Assembly: GCF_010233585.1 (NCBI RefSeq)
Contig: NZ_CP045997.1
Location: 10,188,463 to 10,224,503, forward strand
DNA from: Spirosoma endbachense
GTDB taxonomy: Bacteria; Bacteroidota; Bacteroidia; Cytophagales; Spirosomataceae
Direction: 5' to 3'
DNA: 36,041 bases
The notes under the pieces were generated by a model that worked only from the letters and a program-made list of their open reading frames with translations, was not told where the DNA came from and did no database searches. This document shows positions 12,362-33,923 of this stretch, one piece after another. Positions within the stretch are counted from its first letter, which is position 1. Each line of letters begins with the position of its first letter. Made by a program: the position numbers and the translations under genes.

Positions 12362-14698
12362 TCAATCAAATACCTTACTTTCTGGCCACAACTGCATAAT
12401 AATTCTTTCCAGATCGGTATGTTTTAACCAAAGTGCTTTTTCCTCCTTGAGATAATTTAAGTCGTCTTTATTGGTACCGAAGCCGTGACGGTGGCTCCTT
12501 ATTAAAGAAGCTACTGCCAGTTGAATTTCGTCTTTCTGGGCTTGATAGCATGCCTGGTAAAAATAGATACGTCTATGGCCTTCCTGCCGTGGTTGGATAT
12601 CTCCTTCGGAAGTAGCCGTTGAATGAAGCAATATTAATCTATTCATTTTTCCAGACAAGTATCTCACGATCTTTGCCCGGTATTCATGCTCAGCATGAGT
12701 CATCCACTCTTTATATTTCTCTTCTCTCGTATCTGTGCGAACTTCATCATATACCGTTTGCCCAAATGGAAACCCGTCCTCTGTTTCGTCTGGTAGCTTC
12801 CCATCTGTCATGGCTTCTAAGAACAACTCTACCCGCGCTTCCGGTACTTTACCTCGTCTCACGGAAACTCCATACAATTTGTTTACCTCCTCTGTTTTTT
12901 CGAGCCAGAAAACGAAATGGATATAGGTGTAATCCCCCGGAAGTTTTGGGCCATCTGGAATGGACTGAAACGTGATAGCCAGGTAATTTACCCCCCGCTC
13001 TACTTTACTGGTTTGGATCGGACTTGACGATGCGGAAAACTGCATCCACGCTGTTCCATCAGCACACAAGCGCAGCGGATACTCTACGATAAAATATTGC
13101 CGGGCTTTGAGCGGTACGGTCGGTTTCTCACGAACCCAACGACGTTCTAGGGAGTAAACCTTATATAACCCAACCAGCCCGAACTTTGGGGCCTGTGCAT
13201 CATAATTCGGACTCGTCAAATTAGCTACCGACTTAATTGTATTAATTTCTGTGAGTGCTGGTTGGGTAATGCCCGTAAAAAAATCAAACAAGATCTGACT
13301 ATACTCTCCTGTGGCTTTATTGAAATCATCTCTGCCTGTGAGTAGAAATACGGCTGGCTTGGGGGCTGATTCCATTCGTCTAATTGCCGTTCGGCTCCCC
13401 ATAATCGTTTCCTTCTCATTGTCATTGAGTCCTGTACCAATACCCCATACCCATTCGTCGGGCGCCGTTAGGTTAAAAAGCAGCCGAAACCGATACTGTC
13501 CAGACAGTCGCAGATAGTTGAATTCCAGTGACAACAGTTGGTTAGCCTGTCCCCAAACCCGCACATCCCCTCGAATGGTTTGGATTTGACTGTCCATAGT
13601 GTCAACGCCTTCTGTACTTTCCTGTAATGCCGCATCCATTAGACGGAGTGCCACCTTCCCGTTACTCTCAATAATACATCTAAATCGATGGAGGGTGCTG
13701 GTGACTGCGTTCATGTAAAAGCCGGTGTATATCCCCGCCATTGAGTTGATGGTTGACCAGGCTGTAGCCACTGTAGTTACCACATCCTCACGGGGGACAG
13801 CTAGCACTTTATTAGCCAGAAAATAATGTATCTGATGGGCTAGTTCTTCCTGATCTGCTGCGTCCGTAGCTGGTTTCAAGATGGTTAGCCCTACACTCGG
13901 GATGGAATCGTAGTCCGCTGGCAAGGTATAGATCGTCGAAAATGTACCCGTAAAGTAAGAGCTAGGATCATCCAGCGAAAATATAGGCGTGGCCATACCC
14001 GAGAAAACATCCTGCTGACCCGCAGAGATGATCAGATTAATGTAATCCCGCTCTTTTGTTTTCCTTTCTTCCCACAAATTAACAAACAGAGTCAGGTTTT
14101 TCCCTTCCTGCCACTTCCCGGTAAACTCAATTCTGGCTTCATTCTTAGCCGCAGCATCAATTGCCTGTGCCTGTAAGGAAAGACTAGCCATACGTTTCTG
14201 TTCGTGTAAGGTCAATTCCCCACTAAAAATTTTTGAGCGATGCACACTGTAGCAGTAGCAGGTGTATGTAACACTTTTACGAGGTAGTGGCTGCTGTAGA
14301 TCAGGTGACTCAACCTGAACACCCGCAATGCGAATCTTAAGTTGCGTTGAATCCTTTCCGCTCAACGTTCGTATCTCTACCTGCTGAAGCTGATACAGTG
14401 CCCAGAAGAGGTCTACATACTTTTCTTTTTTCGCATCATGGCCGGATCGTACCTCAAACATCCGGTGAATTGTCATAGGACTCAATCCTGGAATCTTCAA
14501 GTCGGCAATTTGACTCTTGAGTGCACTAAAATGTATCCTGTTAATTCCCTCGGCATCCCCTTTTTTAAGGTTAACCCTAACCTCTACAGCCAGTTGGCGT
14601 AGCTGCTGGACTGTCAGTCTGGCCAGTGCCTCTTCCAGAATTTGTCGTGTGTAATCAGGAACATGTTGACTCGACTGGGGTTGCTGTGATTCACTCAT
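12362..14698 (-). CDS. 778-residue protein of unknown function with three possible repeats of a beta-rich unit
   Basis: No signal peptide or membrane segment is visible, so it is probably cytoplasmic. Residues 13-110 are helical (TRQILEEALARLTVQQLRQL; LSPMTIHRMFEVRSGHDAKK) and could be a DNA-binding or adaptor domain. Three stretches look alike in layout: about 143-260 (FTGKWQEGKNLTLFVNLWEE), 321-445 (GDVRVWGQANQLLSLEFNYL) and 508-632 (VERGVNYLAITFQSI, DYTYIHFVFWLE). Each starts with an aromatic Y-x(2,4)-Y strand and has a G-W/V-x(4)-L-x-L pair of strands near the middle. The tail (650-778) is helical and ends KHTDLERIIMQLWPESKVFD. I know no family with this arrangement. A promoter-like sequence and two palindromes lie upstream. 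Unknown function; a regulatory or sensing role is a guess. Confidence 0.8.
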   Translation of the reverse strand: MSESQQPQSSQHVPDYTRQILEEALARLTVQQLRQLAVEVRVNLKKGDAEGINRIHFSALKSQIADLKIPGLSPMTIHRMFEVRSGHDAKKEKYVDLFWALYQLQQVEIRTLSGKDSTQLKIRIAGVQVESPDLQQPLPRKSVTYTCYCYSVHRSKIFSGELTLHEQKRMASLSLQAQAIDAAAKNEARIEFTGKWQEGKNLTLFVNLWEERKTKERDYINLIISAGQQDVFSGMATPIFSLDDPSSYFTGTFSTIYTLPADYDSIPSVGLTILKPATDAADQEELAHQIHYFLANKVLAVPREDVVTTVATAWSTINSMAGIYTGFYMNAVTSTLHRFRCIIESNGKVALRLMDAALQESTEGVDTMDSQIQTIRGDVRVWGQANQLLSLEFNYLRLSGQYRFRLLFNLTAPDEWVWGIGTGLNDNEKETIMGSRTAIRRMESAPKPAVFLLTGRDDFNKATGEYSQILFDFFTGITQPALTEINTIKSVANLTSPNYDAQAPKFGLVGLYKVYSLERRWVREKPTVPLKARQYFIVEYPLRLCADGTAWMQFSASSSPIQTSKVERGVNYLAITFQSIPDGPKLPGDYTYIHFVFWLEKTEEVNKLYGVSVRRGKVPEARVELFLEAMTDGKLPDETEDGFPFGQTVYDEVRTDTREEKYKEWMTHAEHEYRAKIVRYLSGKMNRLILLHSTATSEGDIQPRQEGHRRIYFYQACYQAQKDEIQLAVASLIRSHRHGFGTNKDDLNYLKEEKALWLKHTDLERIIMQLWPESKVFD

Positions 14699-15586: not shown

Positions 15587-15837
15587 CAACCAGCTACGAT
15601 AAGAATACAGCGCCAAACAGGAACCCGATCCACACTCGCGTCGGCGACGACCGCACAGTAACCGGCAAGCCCTGGCCCCAAAGGCCCGGCACTACCCGCA
15701 ACCGATGCCAAGTGAACACCACCGGTGTCAAAACTATTCCGGGCGGGTCAAGATGACTTGTCCTGACAAATGTTGACCATAAACAGTCAATTTATGGACA
15801 GACTTGTTAGACTACGCATGAAAAAGCCCAAACCTGT

Positions 15838-16212
15838 ATGCGCCAAATGGTGGCCGCCGTTCTACTCGGTCAACTCAACATTGACCAAGCCACTGAGCGG
15901 TATAAAGTCAATCGAATGACCGTCCTGCGCTGGATCAGAAAAATCGAAGAGGAGACAAAAGCCAATAAGCAAGCTGCCTCGTGTGATTCTGATCTGCCAC
16001 CCCCTCGAAAACGAGCGTCAACCAAGAACTCGCCCCAGCAGAATGAAGCCGAAGTCAATCAACTGCGGGCCAAGCTGCGTTCGCTCGAACAAGAACTGGA
16101 AGCGGCTAATTTCAAAGTCCTTTATTATTCAACTCTGGTCCGGGTGGCTAAACATGAATTGGGGGTGGATATTGAAAAAAAGTCCGTTACCAAGCCATCC
16201 GGTTTATGCTGA
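15838..16212 (+). CDS. IS3-family transposase OrfA (helix-turn-helix and leucine-zipper part)
   Basis: The 124-residue frame has a helix-turn-helix typical of IS3 OrfA (MRQMVAAVLLGQLNIDQATE, RYKVNRMTVLRWIRKIEEET) and a coiled coil (EAEVNQLRAKLRSLEQELEA). Near its end the run A7G at 16175-16182 allows -1 slippage into orfB (IEKKVRYQAIRFML), as usual for the family. An ATG at 15818 would begin MKKPK, as in related elements, but it is one base out of frame with the rest. Translation therefore probably starts at 15838, or the 5' end carries a small indel. Confidence 0.8.
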   Translation: MRQMVAAVLLGQLNIDQATERYKVNRMTVLRWIRKIEEETKANKQAASCDSDLPPPRKRASTKNSPQQNEAEVNQLRAKLRSLEQELEAANFKVLYYSTLVRVAKHELGVDIEKKSVTKPSGLC

Positions 16213-16583
16213 CCAATTATCCCAACATTTCGATTCGGCAGCTAGAGGGTGTGCTTGGTTTTTCTCGACAGGCTTACTATCAATATTGGCAACGGCAAAC
16301 GGGCCAGGTGAGCTACGACGCTGACATACTACTTCTGGTCAAGAAAGTTCGTCAGGATCATCCACGTATTGGCGGTCGTAAGCTCTACAGTATGTTAGAG
16401 GAAGAGTTTTTGGAAAGGGGAATAAAGATGGGACGGGATGGCTTTTTCGACCTTCTAGCAGCTAATTGACTGTTAATTAGAAGGCGAAGGCGGAAGGTGA
16501 GGACTACCTTTTCGGGTCATCCGTTCCGCAAGTACCCGAACCTGATCAAGGACTTAGTCGTGGAAAGACCTAACCAATTGTGG

Positions 16584-16599
16584 CCGGGCCGCCGGTGCG
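16584..16599 (+). repeat. 16-nt GC-rich insertion, copy 1
   Basis: CCGGGCCGCCGGTGCG splits the codons for QLW|VSDITYW. The uninterrupted sequence would be TGG-GTA-TCG. The insertion lies inside GG|GT and shifts the frame by one. An identical copy is at 16874-16889. With the flanking GG and GT, 20 nt are identical at the two sites. Confidence 0.9.
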
Positions 16600-16873
16600 G
16601 TATCGGACATCACCTATTGGTTTACGCAGTACGGATGCCTCTATATCTCGTTCGTGACCGATGCCTATTCCAAACGAATCATGGGTTATTGTGTAGCCCC
16701 AACTCTAGGGGCTATTCATTGCAAAGCGGCCTTACAAATGGCCCTGAAAAAGATCAATAGACGAACGGCCAAGGCATTGATTCACCATAGTGATCGGGGA
16801 ATTCAATACTGTAGCGCCATCTATACCACGTTGCTGGACGCCTATCATGTTGATATCAGTATGACTGAGACGG

Positions 16874-16889
16874 CCGGGCCGCCGGTGCG
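16874..16889 (+). repeat. 16-nt GC-rich insertion, copy 2
   Basis: The same 16 bases as at 16584-16599 split MTET|GDPLENP, again inside GG|GT. The uninterrupted sequence would be ACG-GGT-GAT. The core CCGG-GCCG-CCGG can form a very short hairpin. Confidence 0.9.
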
Positions 16890-17222
16890 GTGATCCGCTG
16901 GAGAATCCCATTGCTGAACGGGTAAACGGGATCATCAAGAATGAGTATCTAGCTCACCGAGGGGTGTACCCATTGGCCCAGGCCGAGTTAGTACTTGAGC
17001 AAGCGGTTTTCCTTTACAACTATAAGCGTCCACACTTAAGTTGTGACATGCTCGTGCCGGCTCAAGCGCACAACGGGGGAAAAAAGTTGAAGCGAAGGTG
17101 GAAGAATTATTATCCCCAAAAGCAGACAGTGGATCTGGCGGGTAGTTAAAATAGGGTGTAAATTAGTGGTCAATAAAAAGATGGATAACCAATAAACGGT
17201 CAGCATAAATTAGGACGGGTCA

Positions 17223-17699
17223 AGATCAAAATCGTCTAATTAAAGGGTAAAGGAGATCAATAAATGAACGGCGTAAATATTTGTAAATTAATACTTTAGG
17301 TTGGTTATGACAGCCCTTAAAAAATCGTTCACAAAAACCCTTGGACCGATGAACGCTTTTCATGACTTATAGTGATAGCATAAAGTTCAGCTCTGATACC
17401 TGAAACCGTTCACGAAAAGGTTACTTTTTATGAACGGACTCTATGAAAAGTACAAATTATTAAAGCGGTGCGGGGGAGGCCATTCTTATTTTGCCTTAAC
17501 GGTATAATACCATTTCTAAGGCAAATCTTAAATGTGTATTGGGTGGTAACTAGCAATTCTTTTCACATGCGAATGGAGGTTTGTACAAGGGCCAATACAC
17601 TGTCCTATTTTTAGGGCTTTTTGCGAGATATAGCAGATTCCCTTACTATCACTGTACCCAGACAAATTCAGTTTATCTGAGTAAGTTTCCAGAGGGGCG
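17223..17699. other. non-coding stretch between the IS and the broken phosphatase gene
   Basis: It holds copy 3 of the dispersed CGTTCACGAAAA repeat (17322-17452). A GC-rich patch, GCGGTGCGGGGGAGGCC, lies at about 17465-17481 inside AT-rich DNA. No credible gene is visible; the 69-codon minus-strand frame ending at 17528 overlaps the phosphatase remnant in another frame. Confidence 0.5.
17322..17452 (+). repeat. dispersed CGTTCACGAAAA repeat, copy 3
   Basis: It contains ATCGTTCACAAAAACCCTTG, then GATGAACGCTTTTCATGACTT, then AACCGTTCACGAAAAGGTTA with CTTTTTATGAACG and CTATGAAAAGTACAA. The order and spacing match the 3' parts of the copies at 6006-6210 and 23999-24215. Confidence 0.7.
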
Positions 17700-18935: not shown

Positions 18936-20969
18936 ATGAATGTATACGTCCCGTCAAGCACTATTAGACTATTGCGGTGGCTTCTCGGATTTCTTCTGTT
19001 GCTGCTGATCGGTTGGTTAATTTTTGACACATCCCCAGCCGAAGCGAAGTGGAAAGCAATCGAAGAGGAACTTAAACGGGGAACGATTGGCAAATTGTCA
19101 TTAGAGGAATCGGATCTACTACAACAAACCCTTACCTGGATTATTCCGCAGGCGGGTATTAAAGGGCCAATTATTATTAATAACAAGCCGCAGCCTGGCC
19201 ATCTGCATGTTTATGTGACTACACCCGACGCTATGTCAAGTACGGGGTGCGCCAGGGGCAATGCCATTTACAATGCGGAACTAGATGCGATCTTCATCGA
19301 TCAACAAATCCTGTATCCCAAAGAGATTCCAATGTTAGGTGAAAAAAGTCCAAACGCTTTGCTTTCGCTAAAAGATTTTACTTTCGTGCCCGTTTACCTT
19401 CGTTTTATTTTGCTCCATGAGTTAGGCCATCGTCAGCTTCACCGTCGTTCGAGTGGTTTCTTTGACGTGGGTAGCAGTTCCCGAAAGGCAGAAAAAGAAG
19501 CCGATAATTTTGCGGTCAATACCCTTAAAAAGGCCTACCAGGCAGATCTTAGCACCGGAGGGCATCTGGTAGGCGAGGGGGCGGCCGAATTCATACAAAT
19601 GGAGGATAGCAACTTGTCCGTTTCAGAACGGGTGTGGGTTGATTTAGTCAGTTCAGTGGCGAATATGAGCCAGGCACTTATGTTCTCGGACAGTGATTTT
19701 TCTTCCTTTTATGAAGACACGGCTCATCCGAATTTTATCAAAAGGGCTATGGATATCCTCGACGCGGCCGTTGCCGCTCCAGAAAATAGCTCTGCCCTGA
19801 AGGCCCATGCTGCCATTTATAGGAGGAACCTCGATCGGATGCAACACTTAGCCCAATCCGACTATGCTGAGATACAGTTAACCGAAGGCGTACAAAAGGT
19901 GACCTTTGATGCTGAACATCTACTTTCTATGACCAACCGAGGTCACATATTTTCTGTATCACTTGACGAAGTACAAAAAGCTATTTCAGCGAAGAACCAT
20001 ACCGTTAGACGACAAAGGCCTACCATTAATGGACCTTATCAGAGCGTGGATGAGGATGAGGCCTATCACAGCGAAATGTGGGTTCATCCTAAAAGCGGGC
20101 CTATCATTATCAGACCCGATTATAAAACGTTCGAGGTCAATGCGGTGACCATTCAAAATAACCAGTTTATTGCTTCACCAACCCTAACACGGCAGCTTAG
20201 AAAGGACGGCTATCGAGCAGAAGCTTATACTTCTCCCCAGCCCGCAACGGTAGCCCTATTAAAATCGGTTGTTGCTCAAAATGAGCAGTTTATCATTGTG
20301 CGTAATGGCTTGGTAACCAATCGCATCCGCACCGCTACCATTAAGCAGGCATGTGCTAAACGATTTAACCTCGTATCCGTTAACATTGAAGTAGGTACAG
20401 TTACGGATAGCCTAGCTTATTTAACCATATTCGATGGCCAAGGGATTCCTGAGCACATCGTTGGAGTCGCGCAGCTTGATCTCTACGCGGGGAAAATACG
20501 TTCCCTCAATCCACTACTATTTCGGGATAAGGAAGGCTATGAGATGCCATCTATTGCGAATGATAAACTGGTCGTCGTGCCCCGAAACGGAGAACCGTTA
20601 TATGTCTTATTGACGCGGAATCGAATTCACTTTATTGCATCGATTCTATCAACTACCCGGCCAATAGAGCCATTATCAGACCAACCCTTCTTATTTGATA
20701 GCGTACTGACGGAGCGTCATAAGACGGGCAACATTATGGGCCATTTTGACCCGCAGTTGACCAGCGCAACATTATTGCCATCCGGACAGATCCTTGTGAT
20801 CTTTGCGAATGATTCGGCTTATCTCTTAGATGTTCATACCGGAAAAACAGCCATTGTATTTAGCCCCGGAACTGCCGTTCAAGTATCGGTGAGTAATCAG
20901 GGTTTTACGGCGTTTTTTATACCAAATGGACGCAAAATTTACGTAATTAAACCCAACCCTTACTTTTAA
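18936..20969 (+). CDS. membrane-anchored HELGH zinc metallopeptidase-like protein, paralogue A
   Basis: The 677-residue protein has one N-terminal membrane anchor (LLRWLLGFLLLLLIGWLIF, residues 12-30). The zinc site is HELGH at 161-165, with a likely third ligand E188 in EKEADNFA, in gluzincin spacing. The segment TGCARGNAIYNAELDAIFID (103-122) is shared with the gene at 21666-23597. From about residue 300 to the end it is strand-rich with spaced short repeats (VTFDAEHLLSMTNRGHIFSV; VIFANDSAYLLDVHTGKTAI; GRKIYVIKPN), which suggests a beta-propeller. The catalytic part is probably outside the cytoplasm. The start ATG at 18936 gives a short basic N-terminus before the anchor. Family membership is not certain; M48-like is a guess. 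It has higher GC than its paralogue. Confidence 0.8.
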   Translation: MNVYVPSSTIRLLRWLLGFLLLLLIGWLIFDTSPAEAKWKAIEEELKRGTIGKLSLEESDLLQQTLTWIIPQAGIKGPIIINNKPQPGHLHVYVTTPDAMSSTGCARGNAIYNAELDAIFIDQQILYPKEIPMLGEKSPNALLSLKDFTFVPVYLRFILLHELGHRQLHRRSSGFFDVGSSSRKAEKEADNFAVNTLKKAYQADLSTGGHLVGEGAAEFIQMEDSNLSVSERVWVDLVSSVANMSQALMFSDSDFSSFYEDTAHPNFIKRAMDILDAAVAAPENSSALKAHAAIYRRNLDRMQHLAQSDYAEIQLTEGVQKVTFDAEHLLSMTNRGHIFSVSLDEVQKAISAKNHTVRRQRPTINGPYQSVDEDEAYHSEMWVHPKSGPIIIRPDYKTFEVNAVTIQNNQFIASPTLTRQLRKDGYRAEAYTSPQPATVALLKSVVAQNEQFIIVRNGLVTNRIRTATIKQACAKRFNLVSVNIEVGTVTDSLAYLTIFDGQGIPEHIVGVAQLDLYAGKIRSLNPLLFRDKEGYEMPSIANDKLVVVPRNGEPLYVLLTRNRIHFIASILSTTRPIEPLSDQPFLFDSVLTERHKTGNIMGHFDPQLTSATLLPSGQILVIFANDSAYLLDVHTGKTAIVFSPGTAVQVSVSNQGFTAFFIPNGRKIYVIKPNPYF

Positions 20970-21665: not shown

Positions 21666-23597
21666 ATGAAGAAGTCAACTGCTTTTTGGATTAGAATAGT
21701 AGGTGGAGGAGCAATTGCCATTCTACTTGGGTGGCTTGCAGTTGCTCCACGATTTGAGTCGAGGTTTATAACCCTTAAAAAATTTGTGACTACTGGGGAT
21801 ATTGGTCGCCTTACTTCTGAGGAGAATGTTCTTTTTCAAGAATTGGTATTACGAGCTGTTCAAGCCGCGAACATTAAAGATTCAATTGTAATTAACGGGC
21901 TTCCAACTGAAACATCGCTTCATTTCTATTTGACTGATTCTCGTTCGCAAAAATTTACAGGTTGTTTTACTGGCAATGCTGTTTATGATCCTGAATTAGA
22001 CGCTGTTTTTATAGATCGCAGCCTTTTCAGACCGAAAGAATTAGATAGTTTTGGAGGAGTCTCGATTTTTCCTTTTTGGAGGAATCGAGACTTTGCCTTC
22101 ACTCAGACATTTCTGACTTTGATTCTTCTACATGAGCTTGGGCATCGCACATTGCATCGGTCACTTAGCCCCTTTTTCGATGGAAATCTATTTTCTAATT
22201 CAAGGGATAAAGAGTTAGAAGCTGATGTTTATTCTCTTGAAGCCTTCAAAAAAGGATATTCTCAGGGGTTATTTTCTGATTCAGATATTCTAGGGGAATT
22301 TTCCGGAGCGACCGGCATTAAAGACAAACTTAATTCTGACGAAGCGTTAAGTGCCGCATTGCTATTTTCAGCTTCTCAAATGAGTACAACGCTGTTGTTT
22401 ACACGCGGGTCAACTTCCTCCTTATATGAAGATGAAAGTCATCCTAGTTTTGGCTTTCGAATTAATCGCATTGCTGATATACTTGCGAGACAGGAATCAA
22501 GAAATCCAACTCTGAACAAATACATCGCCTATTTTCGGTCAAAGTTGAAGCGAGTGGACTCGCTTCGCTATCTCGGTTTCACTGAACTTCATAGTGAGAA
22601 AGCTATCAGAGGTATTGCTTTTGATGAGAATGGCCTGACACTCGTTGATAAAAGCTGGAATGTAATACATGTCCCTAATGAAGATTTAGGAAAAAACTTA
22701 AAATCAATAACGTTAAGTCCATACATTCTAGGGAGGATACCAATCCAGGACACAACGGATAATCTTTGTGAAATATGGAGTTTGAAAAATGGCGGGGTGT
22801 TTCTACTGTCTTGTAAGCATCATCTATTCTCAGTACATAAGCGGAAGTTTAAGACGGAGCCATACCTAAACAGTAGGCTTGATTCTACATTGGCAGATAT
22901 TTTCTCTTCAGACCAGCCTGCTCCATTAATAATTCGTAATAATTTCCCAACTTTTTCAGTAATACGGAACCATAAAACAATCCATACCGAACGCTGGGCT
23001 AATGTTTTAGGTAATGCTCCAGCGTCGTCCCCAGAAGAACAACTAACAACAAGAGAAATTACAATTATAGATGACATCAGTTTTGTTCCCGTCTATGGTG
23101 ATCATGGGCTCATAGGGACGCTGATAATTTCTGTTACGCCAGCATTCAACGTGAAATTTGTGAAATTAAATACTGAAGGGGATATTGATAGGACGGGCGA
23201 GCTTGCTATTTGTAAAGAGGGGAACAGAATACGTTACTTCCTAGCAGGTAAAGTGGATGTACATACGAAAGTTACTGTTTGGGAGCTTGACCTATTACAT
23301 GCGCCTAAAGAAAAAGCGACTTATTCACCACTTTTAGATGCATTGTCGACACTCAAAATATCAGCTCAGAATAGTCTTGTCTATATTAGAGATATTAAGT
23401 CTACTGGCGGAAAGTATATATTTATATCCCTTATGGGTGATGGTGTTCTTCTCTATGATATACATTCAAATAGTATCAAACCAGTTTTTCATACAGTAGC
23501 AATAGAACCTACAATTATTACCTCTCGGCAAGGGACTGTGGCCTTTACAGCAGAAAACTCTTACAAAGTATTTGTTATGCCTTTAGGTAATAATTAA
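21666..23597 (+). CDS. membrane-anchored HELGH zinc metallopeptidase-like protein, paralogue B
   Basis: The 643-residue protein repeats the layout of the gene at 18936: a membrane anchor (WIRIVGGGAIAILLGWLAVA, residues 8-27), TGCFTGNAVYDPELDAVFID at 98-117, HELGH at 156-160 and E185 in ELEADVYS. A strand-rich C-terminal region follows (IAFDENGLTLVDKSWNVIHV; GDGVLLYDIHSNSIKPVFH). The two proteins differ clearly in sequence outside these blocks, so the duplication is old. The DNA is more AT-rich than paralogue A. Co-transcribed with the small membrane protein upstream. Probably acts in the periplasm; the target is unknown. Confidence 0.8.
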   Translation: MKKSTAFWIRIVGGGAIAILLGWLAVAPRFESRFITLKKFVTTGDIGRLTSEENVLFQELVLRAVQAANIKDSIVINGLPTETSLHFYLTDSRSQKFTGCFTGNAVYDPELDAVFIDRSLFRPKELDSFGGVSIFPFWRNRDFAFTQTFLTLILLHELGHRTLHRSLSPFFDGNLFSNSRDKELEADVYSLEAFKKGYSQGLFSDSDILGEFSGATGIKDKLNSDEALSAALLFSASQMSTTLLFTRGSTSSLYEDESHPSFGFRINRIADILARQESRNPTLNKYIAYFRSKLKRVDSLRYLGFTELHSEKAIRGIAFDENGLTLVDKSWNVIHVPNEDLGKNLKSITLSPYILGRIPIQDTTDNLCEIWSLKNGGVFLLSCKHHLFSVHKRKFKTEPYLNSRLDSTLADIFSSDQPAPLIIRNNFPTFSVIRNHKTIHTERWANVLGNAPASSPEEQLTTREITIIDDISFVPVYGDHGLIGTLIISVTPAFNVKFVKLNTEGDIDRTGELAICKEGNRIRYFLAGKVDVHTKVTVWELDLLHAPKEKATYSPLLDALSTLKISAQNSLVYIRDIKSTGGKYIFISLMGDGVLLYDIHSNSIKPVFHTVAIEPTIITSRQGTVAFTAENSYKVFVMPLGNN

Positions 23598-24696: not shown

Positions 24697-25275
24697 TGTG
24701 ATAAGGTTAAAGTTTGGCTCAAGGACGATAGAAGCGGTCAAATTACCAAACAGGTTTATCGATTGGTATGCTCATGATGAATGGTTGGCTAATTAGCGTG
24801 GTTCTTTATGGGATGTAAGGGCAGGCCGTTTCCGGGTGAAAAGTCGTTTTTGAAAGCTCTGTAGCAAAGTGAGTACGGAACTGTAAATTGTATAATTCCT
24901 GGTCAAGTTGCATATGGTATGTGGCTGTTGCAAAAGTCGATGCTGCCACGAGCGAATTGGTTAAGTAGGCAATTGATAGCCATTCATCGGGCCCTATTTA
25001 GATTCCTATTCATGCGCATCTATACCGCACTTTTGCAACCGCGAATTCTAAGGTAAAAATAAGTGATTCACATATAAATTACTAAGCTGCTGTTGGTAAT
25101 GCGTAAGCTTGGCAAAACTTTTGGCAAATCCTTGGCTCAATGCTTGATCCGTTTACTTTTACTACCGCGGGGGCGGACCCAAGCCACTGCACTTATACAA
25201 CAACCTTTGTAAACCTTTACCAGTAGCTTACGACCTACATTTTCTTACTACTCCAAATCCTTAATCGCCATATTT
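24697..25275. other. non-coding stretch at the left edge of the small-gene island
   Basis: It contains the cold-shock gene leader, the 19-bp inverted repeat end at 24921-24939, a related site at 25026-25044 (CGCACTTTTGCAACCGCGA) and the motif GCACTTATACAAC at 25189-25201. GC-rich CCGCGGGGGCGGACCC lies at about 25166-25180 in AT-rich DNA. No gene is visible before the lipoprotein start at 25276. Confidence 0.5.
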
Positions 25276-25745: not shown

Positions 25746-26035
25746 GTATCTTATGTTAATGAACTATTCTTAGATCAACCACCTCATACAAGCCGTGAAA
25801 ACAGGCCGAATTGTACTTTGGGAAGGGCGGACGCCGTGCGGAAGAACAAAGCTTCACATTATGGTAAAGGAAGATTGGTAGATTAAGCCGCTCAGTTACC
25901 AGCAAAGTACCCCTAAAAACGGCCTACCAGTTACCTTAGCGTTTGGCTACGATGTATAATTAAAATACTAATATTTAGAAAATAAGTTCATATTTGTGCC
26001 AAGTACAGCTTGTTGTACGATAACTAACTTGGGTC

Positions 26036-30861: not shown

Positions 30862-31200
30862 TCACTGGCTGGTGTTCATTGGAATGTCTTTGGGATTTAG
30901 ATAAGGGAGTCGATATTTGGGCTTAGTAACCATATCACCCCATTCCCAAAACATAATCGGGTTGATCCGATATAATCGGTATAATACCGTGTCATTAGGA
31001 TGCTCTTGTTTATAGGACATAAATCTTCGTTCGATTCCATCATAATTGCGAGCCATTAATGGAATTTCATCATCCCTAAATCCTCCTGAGGCCGTCGCGT
31101 AGTCCAGTGTAGTACAGAAAGGCTCAATGAAGGTTTGAAAGAGAAATTTGAGGGGCTGCATATTAGATAAAACGATGAAGACAAGTACTATCAACTGAGG
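30862..31200 (-). pseudogene. hypothetical membrane protein cut at its 5' end by the IS256 element
   Basis: The remaining frame reads PQLIVLVFIVLSNMQPLKFL, FQTFIEPFCTTLDYATASGG and ends YLNPKDIPMNTSQ. The first credible internal start is only a TTG at 31194. Across the IS (31201-32517), bases 32518-32535 read GTG AAG CGT TGG TTG AGA in frame with it. This restores VKRWLRPQLIVLVFIVLSNM, a normal signal-anchor N-terminus, with AAAGGAAG just upstream. The reconstruction assumes no target duplication. The truncated frame might still be translated from the TTG. Confidence 0.6.
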
Positions 31201-32517
31201 GAGTGCTCGCTGAACTGTGTCAGCAGGGTTTATTCGAAGCGATGTGATTTAATCCGCTCCTCAAAGATAATGCTGAACTGATTAATGATCTCTTTCCAGT
31301 TGTAAGTCGTCGTTTCCCACTTGATCTGCAAATTCTGGATAACCAGATAAACCAACTTTTGTAAAGCGACATCCGACGAAAAAGCCCCTTTCGTTTTGGT
31401 CACTTTGCGCAGCTGCCGATGATAGCCTTCGACTGTATTGGTCGTATACATTGCCTTGCGAATCGCAGGTGGATAGTCGAAAAAAGGAGACAGTAGTTCC
31501 CATTTCTCTAACCACGGCTGGACCGCTTTAGGATAGGCTGAGCCCCATTTTTCTTGCACTACTAACAAATTTTCTAAGCCTTGCTCGCGGTTAGAAGCCT
31601 GATAAACCGTCTTTAGATCGTTAGCCAAGTCTTTTAGGTACTTGTCGGGCACGAACCGGAAACTGTTACGGAGTTGGTGCACAATACAAAGCTGCACGGT
31701 AGTGGTGGGGAAAACACTGGCAATGGCTGTATCAAAACCTTTCAAGCCATCCACACAGCTAATCAGCAAGTCTTCTACTCCCCGTTGTTTCAGATCGGTG
31801 AGTACGGTCAACCAGAATTTAGCCGATTCACTCTCAGCCGTGTAAATGCCGAGTACTTGCTTTTTGCCTGCCAAACTCAGCCCGATCACGCTATAAAGCA
31901 CACGCGTGACCACTTTGCCATCATGGCGCACTTTGTAATAGATGCCGTCGAGCCACACCAAGGTGTATAGGCTTTCCAATGGTCGATTTTGCCATTCCCG
32001 CATAGCCGGAATGACTTTGTCCGTAATGGCTGTTAATTCGCTGTCAGACAGTGAATAGCCGTACATCTCCAACAGGTGTTTGCTGATGTCAGCGTAGCTG
32101 TTTCCTACACCGTAGAGCGATAAAACCTTCTGTTCGAGTTGGGGCGTGAGGATGACCTGTCGTTTGGGTACGATCTGGGGTTGGTAGCTACCGGTGCGAT
32201 CCCGCGGAGTCTGTAACTCTAAAGGACCAGCGCTACTTTTAACCTGCTTGGTAGTTTTGCCGTTTCGGCGGTTCTGCTCAGGAAGTCGGGTTTGCGCCAA
32301 ATGGCCATCCATTTCTCCTTCCAAAGCGGACTCTAAAAAGTGTTTAAGCAAAGGAGCGAATAAGCCGTTTTCGCCCGTCAGGGGTTTGCCTTCGTAAAGG
32401 CCTTTGATAGCCGCTTGTTTGAAGGCTTCAAAGTCGAACTCGTTCTCGTTAGTCATGATGGTGAAAGTTAGAGGTTTTAACCCTTTATTCACCTGTGACA
32501 CAGTTTAGCGAGCAGTC
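31201..32517 (-). mobile_element. IS256-family insertion sequence
   Basis: Terminal inverted repeats at 31201-31222 and 32496-32517 share TGCTCGCTgAACTGTGTCA (left) versus TGCTCGCTaAACTGTGTCA (right). One full-length transposase lies between them. An 8-9 bp target duplication, expected for the family, is not seen in the flanks (left AACTGAGG, right TCTCAACC). Confidence 0.85.
31230..32456 (-). CDS. IS256-family transposase
   Basis: The start is taken as ATG 32456 (MTNENEFDFEAFKQAAIKGL); the longer frame starts inside the right terminal repeat, so it is unlikely. The 408-residue protein has the N-terminal MDGHLAQTR and KSSAGPLELQTPRDR segments of the family. The catalytic triad lies in VWLDGIYYKVR (Asp), ISCVDGLKGFDTAI (Asp) and TTNTVEGYHRQLRKVTKTKG (Glu). 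All are present and the frame is unbroken, so the element is probably active. Confidence 0.92.
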   Translation of the reverse strand: MTNENEFDFEAFKQAAIKGLYEGKPLTGENGLFAPLLKHFLESALEGEMDGHLAQTRLPEQNRRNGKTTKQVKSSAGPLELQTPRDRTGSYQPQIVPKRQVILTPQLEQKVLSLYGVGNSYADISKHLLEMYGYSLSDSELTAITDKVIPAMREWQNRPLESLYTLVWLDGIYYKVRHDGKVVTRVLYSVIGLSLAGKKQVLGIYTAESESAKFWLTVLTDLKQRGVEDLLISCVDGLKGFDTAIASVFPTTTVQLCIVHQLRNSFRFVPDKYLKDLANDLKTVYQASNREQGLENLLVVQEKWGSAYPKAVQPWLEKWELLSPFFDYPPAIRKAMYTTNTVEGYHRQLRKVTKTKGAFSSDVALQKLVYLVIQNLQIKWETTTYNWKEIINQFSIIFEERIKSHRFE

Positions 32518-32597
32518 TCTCAACCAACGCTTCACGTTCTTCCTTTCCCAACTAATACTGCACATATAGAGTATCACTTTAGTGTTGTATAAGTGGC
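32518..32597 (-). promoter_or_regulatory. displaced 5' end and upstream region of the IS256-cut gene
   Basis: On the minus strand this contains GCCACTTATACAAC (32584-32597), then AAAGGAAG (ribosome-binding-like, about 32540-32547), then GTG at 32533-32535 followed by five codons up to the IS end. The spacing from the CACTTATACAAC motif to the GTG (about 50 nt) resembles that at 28293-28345. Confidence 0.5.
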
Positions 32598-32647: not shown

Positions 32648-33549
32648 TCAATTTAAGATGGTACCAGCTGACTGCGAAATTGTATTTTTCTTCCCCTTTG
32701 TACCCTCAATATACCATTGGGCTGGCGTATGGTAATCCAGCGACTGGTGTTTGCGGCCATAGTTATAAAAATGAAAGTACTTGGCTAAACCGCGCTCTAA
32801 AGCTAAACCATCTGGGTAAGCCTGCAAATAGATATGCTCGTATTTCACTGTTCGCCATAGTCGCTCAATAAAAATATTGTCTATGGCCCGGCCTTTTCCA
32901 TCCATACTGATTTGGATTTCAGCCGCTTTTAGGGGCCCTAAAAAACGAGGACTGGTGAACTGGCCCCCTTGGTCGGTATTGAAAATCCGAGGCTTACCCC
33001 ATTGCTTAAGTGCATCCTGTAAAGCATCAATGCAAAAATCAACTAGCAAGGTGTTCGATAAGCGCCAACTTAGCACAAAACGGGTATACCAGTCGATGAC
33101 CGCACACAGATAAAGAAATCCGTTGGCCATCGGAATGTACGTTATATCCGTTGACCAAACATGGTTAGGCTCTTCAATGGTTACACCGCCTAACAGATAG
33201 GGGTAAATTTGATGTCCCTCAGCAGGTTTTGACAAATTCGGTTTGCAATAGATCGCTTCCAGGCTCATCAACCGCATTAGCCGCCGTACACGTTTGAGAT
33301 TTACAGGGGTTTGTGTTGTGGTTAGCTCTTGCTGCATTCGGCGCACACCCAACTCAGGTCGTTCGGTAAAGAGTTTGTCGATCTGTGCCATTAATGCCAG
33401 GTTTGCTGCTGATTCACCCACTGGCTGATAGTAATAGCTGGCGCGGGTAATGCCCAGTAGCTCACACTGTTGATTAATACTTAACTGATTATGAGCAGGC
33501 TCAATCAGGCAACGCCGGTCGCTGACTAGATCGTCCGTAATTTTTTTTT
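32648..33549 (-). CDS. IS3-family transposase OrfB (DDE integrase), made by -1 frameshift
   Basis: The frame follows the slippery A9 (T9 at 33541-33549 on the + strand) and reads KKKITDDLVSDRRCLIEPAH, then SINQQCELLGITRASYYYQP. The catalytic residues are in VWSTDITYIP (Asp), FNTDQGGQF (Asp) and FIERLWRTVKYEH (Glu). The C-terminal FYNYGRKHQSLDYHTPAQWY is typical. The frame is unbroken to 32648, so the element should be functional. The upstream extension of this frame to 33832 is only an open stretch antisense-phase to orfA. Confidence 0.92.
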
Positions 33550-33822
33550 GAGGTAGTCGTTTTCCACCTTGAGTTGGCCAATTTGTTGAAACAAGGGGGC
33601 TTCGATCTGCTCCCGTTCGTAGTCTGCCATAGGCGAACTGACTAGCCCATTGAACAGCGTGGGTAAACCCTCTAAGGCTTGTTGCTTCCACTGAGTAATT
33701 TGAGTAGCATGAATACCGAATTCGCTGCTGAGTTGAGCCAGAGTTTTGTGCCCCTTTAATGTTTCCAGGACCACTTTGGTCTTGAAGTTTGCGTCGTGAA
33801 CACGCCGAGTTGATTTGGCCAT
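33526..33822 (-). CDS. IS3-family transposase OrfA
   Basis: The 98-residue protein starts MAKSTRRVHDANFKTKVVLE and has a helix-turn-helix (TLAQLSSEFGIHATQITQWK) that binds the element's ends. A coiled coil follows, ending QIGQLKVENDYLKKKLRTI. The overlap with orfB contains the A9 slippery run. Expression as the OrfAB fusion by -1 slippage is known for the family and inferred here. Confidence 0.92.
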   Translation of the reverse strand: MAKSTRRVHDANFKTKVVLETLKGHKTLAQLSSEFGIHATQITQWKQQALEGLPTLFNGLVSSPMADYEREQIEAPLFQQIGQLKVENDYLKKKLRTI

Positions 33823-33923
33823 GATTGGACATTTTGTAGGTCTAAGTTATTGGTTTTACACTTATCACTACTGTCCAACTTTAGGGGAGCACTATAGTAA
33901 GCCTCAATTTAGTACTCAATTAT

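What the first reader, a model, noticed from the sequence alone, without database searches (positions are those of the whole stretch)
16582..16891. Same 16-nt GC-rich sequence inserted twice into one IS3 transposase gene
CCGGGCCGCCGGTGCG occurs at 16584-16599 and 16874-16889, each time inside GG|GT and each time shifting the frame by one. Deleting exactly these bases at both sites restores the expected QLW-VSDITYW and MTET-GDPLENP protein sequence. So these are two recent, precise insertions of one tiny unit with the same site preference. They resemble the short GC clusters known from some mitochondrial genomes more than any standard bacterial element. Both sit next to catalytic residues. Other GC-rich patches in AT-rich DNA here (about 17465-17481, 25166-25180, 25829-25846) are loosely similar but not copies.
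Basis: seen in the sequence. Interest (0 to 1): 0.75.

Follow-up and report, generated by a model that had tools for sequence, protein, structure and literature searches.

The report
Sixteen-base mobile elements in Spirosoma transposases
A 16-base DNA unit has inserted precisely in many places in Spirosoma bacteria, often inside the genes of other jumping elements, and one of its bases tends to match the base it lands next to, so it looks like a very small mobile element that reads its target.

Summary
CCGGGCCGCCGGTGCG lies at 16584-16599 and 16874-16889 inside an IS3-type transposase. It belongs to a family of 16-nt insertions matched in 36 of 36 genomes searched of the genus (Spirosoma) and in 1 of 23 others of the order. 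Related IS copies lack the inserts by 16 nt: 14 of 15 at site 1, 13 of 13 at site 2. A host gene has one too (DUF1348; empty in 3 relatives). Indels between held loci peak at 16 nt. The insertions covary as two interlocked helices, 1-4/9-12 and 6-8/15-17, where 17 is the first TARGET base: in 56 indel-defined events C6 meets G 40 of 40 times and T6 meets A 8 of 8; G6 breaks the rule in 4 of 7. I infer a non-autonomous ultra-short mobile element whose loop base helps choose its target. It leaves no target duplication at the site where this can be judged. The enzyme is unknown; Y1 genes are absent from the own genome. Some interrupted IS copies moved afterwards with inserts inside. Closest known: cyanobacterial SDRs, fungal mitochondrial GC clusters/MUSEs, REPs; IS608 for guide-target pairing.

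The parts
16584..16599 (+). 16-nt element, copy 1 (CCGGGCCGCCGGTGCG), between W and V of the ELW|VSD motif of the IS3 orfB
   Evidence: absent by 16 nt in 14 of 15 related IS copies spanning it, present in L528
16874..16889 (+). 16-nt element, copy 2, inside the TET|GDPLENP stretch
   Evidence: absent by 16 nt in 13 of 13 related IS copies spanning it
16600..16601 (+). target dinucleotide GT of copy 1; its G is position 17, complementary to element base C6
   Evidence: GT present in most empty sites; 6:17 covariation
16890..16891 (+). target dinucleotide GT of copy 2
15801..17212 (+). IS3-type insertion sequence carrying both elements (extent = alignment with L528; ends not mapped to terminal repeats)
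15838..16212 (+). orfA of the IS
   Evidence: ORF list; aligned with L528
16206..16469 (+). first open piece of orfB, ended by an in-frame TGA at 16467-16469 that L528 shares
16600..16872 (+). orfB piece between the two elements, integrase core (rve)
   Evidence: Pfam PF00665, E 1.6e-12
16892..17149 (+). orfB piece after copy 2 (rve_3)
   Evidence: Pfam PF13683, E 7.1e-12 on 16892-17146

Best explanation
The two 16-mers are copies of a family of ultra-short, non-autonomous mobile DNA elements of Spirosoma. SHOWN: the unit is 16 nt (15-nt forms occur), inserts precisely, mostly between a purine and N(T), in either orientation, often in transposase genes (IS3-, IS110-, DDE_Tnp_1-, DDE_Tnp_1_3- and Mutator/IS256-type), in small repeat hairpins and between genes; at the one unambiguous site there is no target duplication. 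Positions 1-4 match 9-12, and 6-8 match 15, 16 and the first target base 17; both pairings are kept by compensatory changes. INFERRED: the unit moves as a folded single strand and its loop base 6 reads the target base by pairing, as the guide of IS200/IS605 elements does; an enzyme supplied in trans, not identified, cuts and joins. An insertion normally breaks the gene it enters; copies are found mainly in transposase genes and repeats because insertions elsewhere are purged, because insertion there is favoured, or both.
For: Family and spread: (36 of 36 own-genus genomes; 602 matches, sum, against 4 for the reversed control). Precise insertion. Covariation in 56 indel-defined events with distinct flanks: 1:12 Watson-Crick in 52, 2:11 in 53, 6:17 in 52, 7:16 in 54, 8:15 in 55, three or four pair types each. 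Pattern with loop and tail left open: of 150 listed rows (of 921; three of 13 genomes) 108 are distinct and 10 of these have all three helix-B pairs; shuffles give 1.8 on average, maximum 8, 0 of 5000 reach 10. Base 6 against target base, 150 of 300 rows listed: T6 with A in 93 of 108, A6 with T in 18 of 25 (rechecked in 95); C6 with a base other than G: 19 hits in 36 genomes. Transposase genes: of 28 own-genome sites looked at, ORF pieces at 10 exceed a transposase Pfam cut-off.
Against: No enzyme found; PF01797 is absent from G000 and six other carriers. Many rows repeat one string: by distinct 18-mer T6 meets A in 8 of 17 and A6 meets T in 5 of 12. G6 meets A in 11 of 17 rows, C in 3. The folding program gives one hairpin at a time, no better than shuffles; it does not model pseudoknots. 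A structure-only scan of 800 kb of the own genome gives 2 hits, as the controls do, so the family is sparse and the fold alone does not find it. T18 was demanded by several patterns of mine; in the indel-defined set it is 37 of 56.
Confidence: 0.74

Rival explanations
1. The 16-mers are REP-like repeats moved by a RAYT/Y1 (IS200-like) transposase, as single units or as REPIN-type inverted pairs.
Against: No Y1 gene in 7 of 36 carriers (one of them, G021, only 82% complete), including the own genome (43 matches) and G031 (33); 5 of 30 fetched Y1 loci have any match within 3 mismatches; GTAG/CGTC tags are no commoner beside the elements than 50 nt away (51 against 53 of 263 sites).
Confidence: 0.2
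2. Inserts in transposase genes are tolerated: skipped in translation, removed from the RNA, or excised precisely from DNA often enough for the IS to stay active.
For: Two 100% identical 1343-bp IS256-type copies in G032 with different 8-bp target duplications carry the same two inserts; an 81%-identical copy with its own target duplication has one at the same site, and the differences are mostly third-position, 26/12/112 and 13/9/58. A 7-insert IS3 copy (L254) has private changes 1/1/15 by codon position and no stop in 314 codons.
Against: Of 28 own-genome sites looked at only 1 is a clear hit in a host gene, so inserts look harmful in general; both orientations occur in one gene. L254 is also cut short at its 5' end (alignment with L587 starts inside orfA), so it is dead anyway. 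L584, the most riddled copy, shows 38/20/34. Window and L528 also carry stops. Mobilisation in trans and gene conversion explain the rest.
Confidence: 0.11
3. The 16-mers are footprints left when a larger element excises.
For: Uniform length, precise ends, no target duplication.
Against: Footprints should not vary with compensatory changes or follow the target base; tandem copies occur inside hairpin repeats. I made no search for a larger element with these ends.
Confidence: 0.08
4. Native sequence, chance or assembly error.
For: One 2-mismatch match (L277) proved native: same length in the orthologue.
Against: Empty homologues, genus-wide recurrence, shared sites in separate assemblies.
Confidence: 0.01

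Closest known systems
Very small mobile repeats of cyanobacteria (SDRs; Elhai et al. 2008)
   Same: Tiny dispersed bacterial repeats; precise insertion of SDR5 between bases 3 and 4 of HIP1 is stated in PMC4390886 (passage). Length of 21-27 nt and insertion into other repeats are recalled; the paper is not held.
   Different: Here 16 nt, two interlocked covarying helices, target base following an internal base, many copies in transposase genes; other phylum. SDR sequences were not compared.
Mobile GC clusters of yeast mitochondria and MUSEs of Podospora
   Same: Short GC-rich mobile units, tandem arrays, also inside genes (PMC4464245 passages; MUSEs: PMC7272585 passages).
   Different: GC clusters are 30-80 bp and in organelles; a match between element and target base is not known to me (recalled).
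IS200/IS605 elements such as IS608
   Same: Target chosen by base pairing with a guide in the element; precise insertion next to a short target; hairpins (PMC5934647 passages).
   Different: IS608 has tnpA and a tetranucleotide target; here 16 nt, one clear guide base, guide inside the hairpin loop, and no Y1 gene in 7 of 36 carriers.
REP/REPIN repeats with RAYTs
   Same: Small palindromes, some as inverted pairs (PMC3116915 passages; PMC3733652 abstract).
   Different: Single 16-nt insertion unit, no tag, not beside Y1 genes.
Mitochondrial bypass (byp) elements of Magnusiomyces
   Same: Blocks of extra bases inside protein genes, 81 positions (PMC5009743 passages).
   Different: Those are skipped by the ribosome; no skipping is shown here.

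Membership tests
REP/REPIN moved by RAYT | Dedicated Y1 (RAYT) gene in the genome | tested here: not met
   PF01797 absent from G000 and from 7 of 36 carriers in all
REP/REPIN moved by RAYT | Repeats flank the RAYT gene | tested here: not met
   5 of 30 fetched Y1 loci have any match within 3 mismatches
REP/REPIN moved by RAYT | Unpaired GTAG or CGTC tag at one end | tested here: not met
   51 of 263 sites have such a tetramer within 10 nt on either strand, 53 of 263 at 50 nt away; definition from PMC3733652 abstract
IS200/IS605 | Insertion without target duplication beside a target matched by a guide | tested here: inconclusive
   no duplication at the L279 site; one matching base, by covariation only
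IS200/IS605 | Two ends with subterminal hairpins and a tnpA gene | tested here: not met
   the insertion unit is 16 nt
Cyanobacterial SDR | Small dispersed repeat with sharp ends and empty homologous sites | tested here: met
Cyanobacterial SDR | Sequence membership in an SDR class | not tested
   SDR sequences not held
Classical MITE | Target duplication on insertion | tested here: not met
   L279 site GA|AT allows one placement only and shows none
byp-like translational bypass | Inserts occur freely in host protein genes | tested here: not met
   1 clear case among 28 own-genome sites looked at; L276 and L283 unresolved
byp-like translational bypass | Normal protein made from the interrupted gene | not testable with these tools
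   needs RNA and protein data

The most novel reading that the evidence does not exclude
The 16-nt unit is both a guided mobile element and a removable one: transposase genes carrying one or more copies stay functional because the folded unit is skipped, spliced or precisely excised, so IS lineages live with it for long times, a bacterial counterpart of mitochondrial byps or ciliate internal eliminated sequences, and it acts as a brake on transposition.
Probability: 0.11. Interest if true: 0.97.

Novelty: new variant of a known kind. Interest (0 to 1): 0.82.

Why it matters
How the smallest mobile repeats (SDRs, GC clusters, MUSEs) move is, to my knowledge, still open. Here the comparative record gives exact ends, a covarying fold and a base in the element that tends to predict the base at the target, so the mechanism can be tested directly. 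If base 6 is a true guide, this is a very small target-reading mobile element. The load in transposase genes, nine structural matches in one IS copy, also bears on how genomes silence insertion sequences.

Tried and rejected
Y1/RAYT as the mover was tested and not supported for the own genome. Chance or assembly origin was rejected. In that set 263 flank-unique sites were kept of 378; for the flank couplings 242 of 263 were used, MITE-hairpin and GAT copies dropped. The set was picked partly by pairing, so its 6:17 figure is not independent; searches are. In one search, 56 of 97 sixteen-nt gaps were kept (in register with GG at 3-4 and CC at 9-10, one per flank); some of the 97 are one event placed twice by shifted gaps. 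Loci were fetched because they hold the element, so the height of the 16-nt peak is inflated. The rows are capped lists (150 of 921 and 150 of 300), not cleared of copies. The 28 own-genome sites (26 plus the window's two) are those I had fetched, not the whole; ORF pieces of about half of them were sent to Pfam. L277 was dropped as native. L276 and L283 lie in ORFs that run through the match and stay unresolved. Rfam: no match in 15700-17300. Literature: listings of searches showed no title or abstract opening that describes this family; 73-75 and 81 sought analogues. The library is open-licence only and the key SDR paper is not held, so a prior description is not excluded.

Full report
WHAT IS THERE. 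The 16-mer CCGGGCCGCCGGTGCG is at 16584-16599 and 16874-16889, each followed by GT, inside the orfB of an IS3-type insertion sequence (integrase core in the pieces). The window lies in a 10.33-Mb single-contig genome. Its genus is Spirosoma: a same-genus genome (G035) holds a 189,452-bp contig whose match has the same coordinates as the match in the 189,452-bp S. linguale DSM 74 plasmid CP001770 (contig length).

PRECISE INSERTION. Of related IS copies from the genus, 15 span site 1: 14 lack it, the gaps adding up to 16 nt, and one (L528, from G032, 84% identical) has the same 16-mer. Of 13 spanning site 2 none has it. L528 also shares the in-frame TGA at 16467-16469 and has further stops. Between the two sites window and L528 differ 9/1/20 by codon position, which points to selection on the protein for most of their separate history. 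Site 1 was therefore either hit twice, passed on by conversion, or tolerated for some time.

A FAMILY. The own genome has 6 exact 16-mers, all with GT behind them, and 131 matches within 3 mismatches of the 18-mer against 2 for the reversed control. With one mismatch, 36 of 36 own-genus genomes match (2 to 52 copies; 602 matches, 4 in the reversed control), and 1 of 23 other genomes of the order (G052, 11 matches with varied flanks). Places are of four kinds: transposase genes; the stem of a dispersed hairpin repeat (AAACCTATAAG|GTTTTTGAAACC...), often as tandem 16-mers; other small palindromic repeats, some with two inverted copies; and DNA without an evident ORF. Of 28 own-genome sites that I looked at (26 plus the window's two; not the whole), ORF pieces at 10 match a transposase family above its cut-off and one more below it; pieces of about half of the sites were tested. 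One site is in a host gene, a DUF1348 gene at G000:2565181, whose two pieces match profile positions 3-85 and 85-128; three relatives have it uninterrupted with an exact 16-nt gap. The site at G000:4328176 is empty in G020.

LENGTH. Among indels between homologous held loci, clustered events number 9 at 14 nt, 63 at 15, 97 at 16, 1 at 17 and 21 at 18. Apart from 1-2 nt and lengths divisible by three, no other length exceeds 13. The loci were chosen for holding the element and some events are counted twice by shifted gaps, so the height is inflated; the sharpness is not.

FOLD AND TARGET. From 56 indel-defined elements with distinct flanks, positions 1:12, 2:11, 6:17, 7:16 and 8:15 form Watson-Crick pairs in 52, 53, 52, 54 and 55 cases, with four pair types at 1:12, 2:11, 6:17 and 7:16 and three at 8:15. 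Pairs 3:10 and 4:9 were required for register and say nothing. Over the 32 distinct 17-mers mutual information is highest at 7:16, 6:17 and 1:12, then at 1:5 and 5:12, which I cannot explain, then 2:11 and 8:15. An independent pattern leaving 5-8 and 14-17 open gave 150 listed rows (of 921, from three of 13 genomes), 108 distinct; 10 have all three helix-B pairs against a shuffle mean of 1.8 (maximum 8, 0 of 5000 reach 10); slid registers give 4 and 0. Position 17 belongs to the target: it is there in empty sites. So the element's base 6 tends to predict the target's first base: in the 56 events C6 meets G in 40 of 40, T6 meets A in 8 of 8, A6 meets T in 1 of 1, G6 meets C in 3 and A in 4 of 7. 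In the capped list (150 of 300 rows, copies not removed) T6 meets A in 93 of 108, A6 meets T in 18 of 25, G6 meets A in 11, C in 3, G in 3 of 17; counted by distinct 18-mer the figures are weaker, 8 of 17 for T6 and 5 of 12 for A6. C6 with a base other than G gives 19 hits in 36 genomes. The G6 rows are against simple pairing. The base before the insert is a purine in 51 of 56. The L279 site, GA|AT, allows only one placement and shows no target duplication. The energy program sees one hairpin at a time, so the interlocked fold rests on covariation.

LOAD IN INSERTION SEQUENCES. Five copies of one IS3 family (L584, L586, L587, L004, L254) share a set of positions, filled in some copies and empty in others; one site holds a 15-nt form in opposite orientations in two copies, another holds different variants. 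L584 has nine structural matches. L254 has seven inserts, one of them 15 nt; its private changes in orfB are 1/1/15 by codon position and no stop is present in 314 codons, but its 5' end is missing, so it is dead anyway and must have died recently; L584 shows 38/20/34. L547 and L531, copies in one genome, differ by 59 substitutions in 1,138 aligned bases and by five inserts (four of 16 nt, one of 14), with no other indel. L254 and L587, both of G031, are more alike just before their shared GAACA insert than overall (4 differences in about 69 bases by eye), so conversion may spread some inserts.

MOVED AFTER INSERTION. Two IS256-type copies in G032 are 100% identical over 1,343 bp, have different 8-bp target duplications, and both carry the same two inserts, which leave the transposase in three frames (Transposase_mut in two pieces). 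An 81%-identical third copy with its own duplication has one insert at the same site. The IS was thus moved with inserts inside. Help in trans from an intact copy is the plain reading; tolerance of the insert is not excluded.

WHAT MOVES IT. Target choice by pairing and insertion without duplication recall IS200/IS605 elements, whose guide pairs with a tetranucleotide target (PMC5934647, passages). But Y1 transposase genes are absent from G000 and from 6 other carriers of 36, 16-mers do not accompany Y1 genes, and no GTAG/CGTC tag is enriched. The weak correlation of copy number with Y1 number (0.42; 0.34 given genome size) leaves a role in some genomes possible. The enzyme is unknown.

WHAT IS KNOWN. 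Cyanobacterial SDRs, yeast GC clusters and Podospora MUSEs are the same kind of thing: very small mobile repeats. SDR5 inserts precisely in HIP1 (PMC4390886, passage); GC clusters are 30-80 bp (PMC4464245, passages); MUSEs are called ultra-short and highly invasive (PMC7272585, passages). REPINs are REP doublets tied to RAYTs (PMC3116915, passages). None of the passages I read describes a unit of 16 nt with two covarying helices and a target base following an internal base. I file it as a new variant of the kind 'very small mobile repeat' that works like a guided single-strand element, not as a member of REP, IS200/IS605 or MITE, since defining features of those were tested and not met.

Noticed in passing
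window 31199-32519: An uninterrupted Mutator/IS256-type element (Transposase_mut, 423 aa); its 87%-identical relative in another Spirosoma (L593, G034) has two 16-nt inserts and a third that the aligner splits.
   Followed up: partly
window 32648-33832: A second IS3-type transposase (394 aa, rve), open along its length and without structural matches, close to the broken one.
   Followed up: no
own genome, e.g. L014-L034: A dispersed hairpin repeat, AAACCTATAAG...TTATAGGTTT, often carries the variant CCGGGCCGCCGATGCG in its stem, singly or in tandem; the tandem copies would fit repeated insertion before the same GT.
   Followed up: partly
elements, positions 1, 5 and 12: Base 5 tends to equal base 12 (both complementary to base 1): CCGGG..G, TCGGA..A, ACGGT..T. 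No explanation found.
   Followed up: no
G052 (L556-L566): A genome of another family in the order has about a dozen matches, several followed by GTTACTTCG or GTTGCTTCG.
   Followed up: partly
L588 1241-1552 and L589 1302-1613: A 312-bp stretch 99.7% identical in two contigs of G031 carries the same 16-mer in both.
   Followed up: no
window 12362-14698, 18936-20969, 21666-23597: Large open frames (778, 677, 643 aa) without a Pfam match at E 0.001.
   Followed up: no
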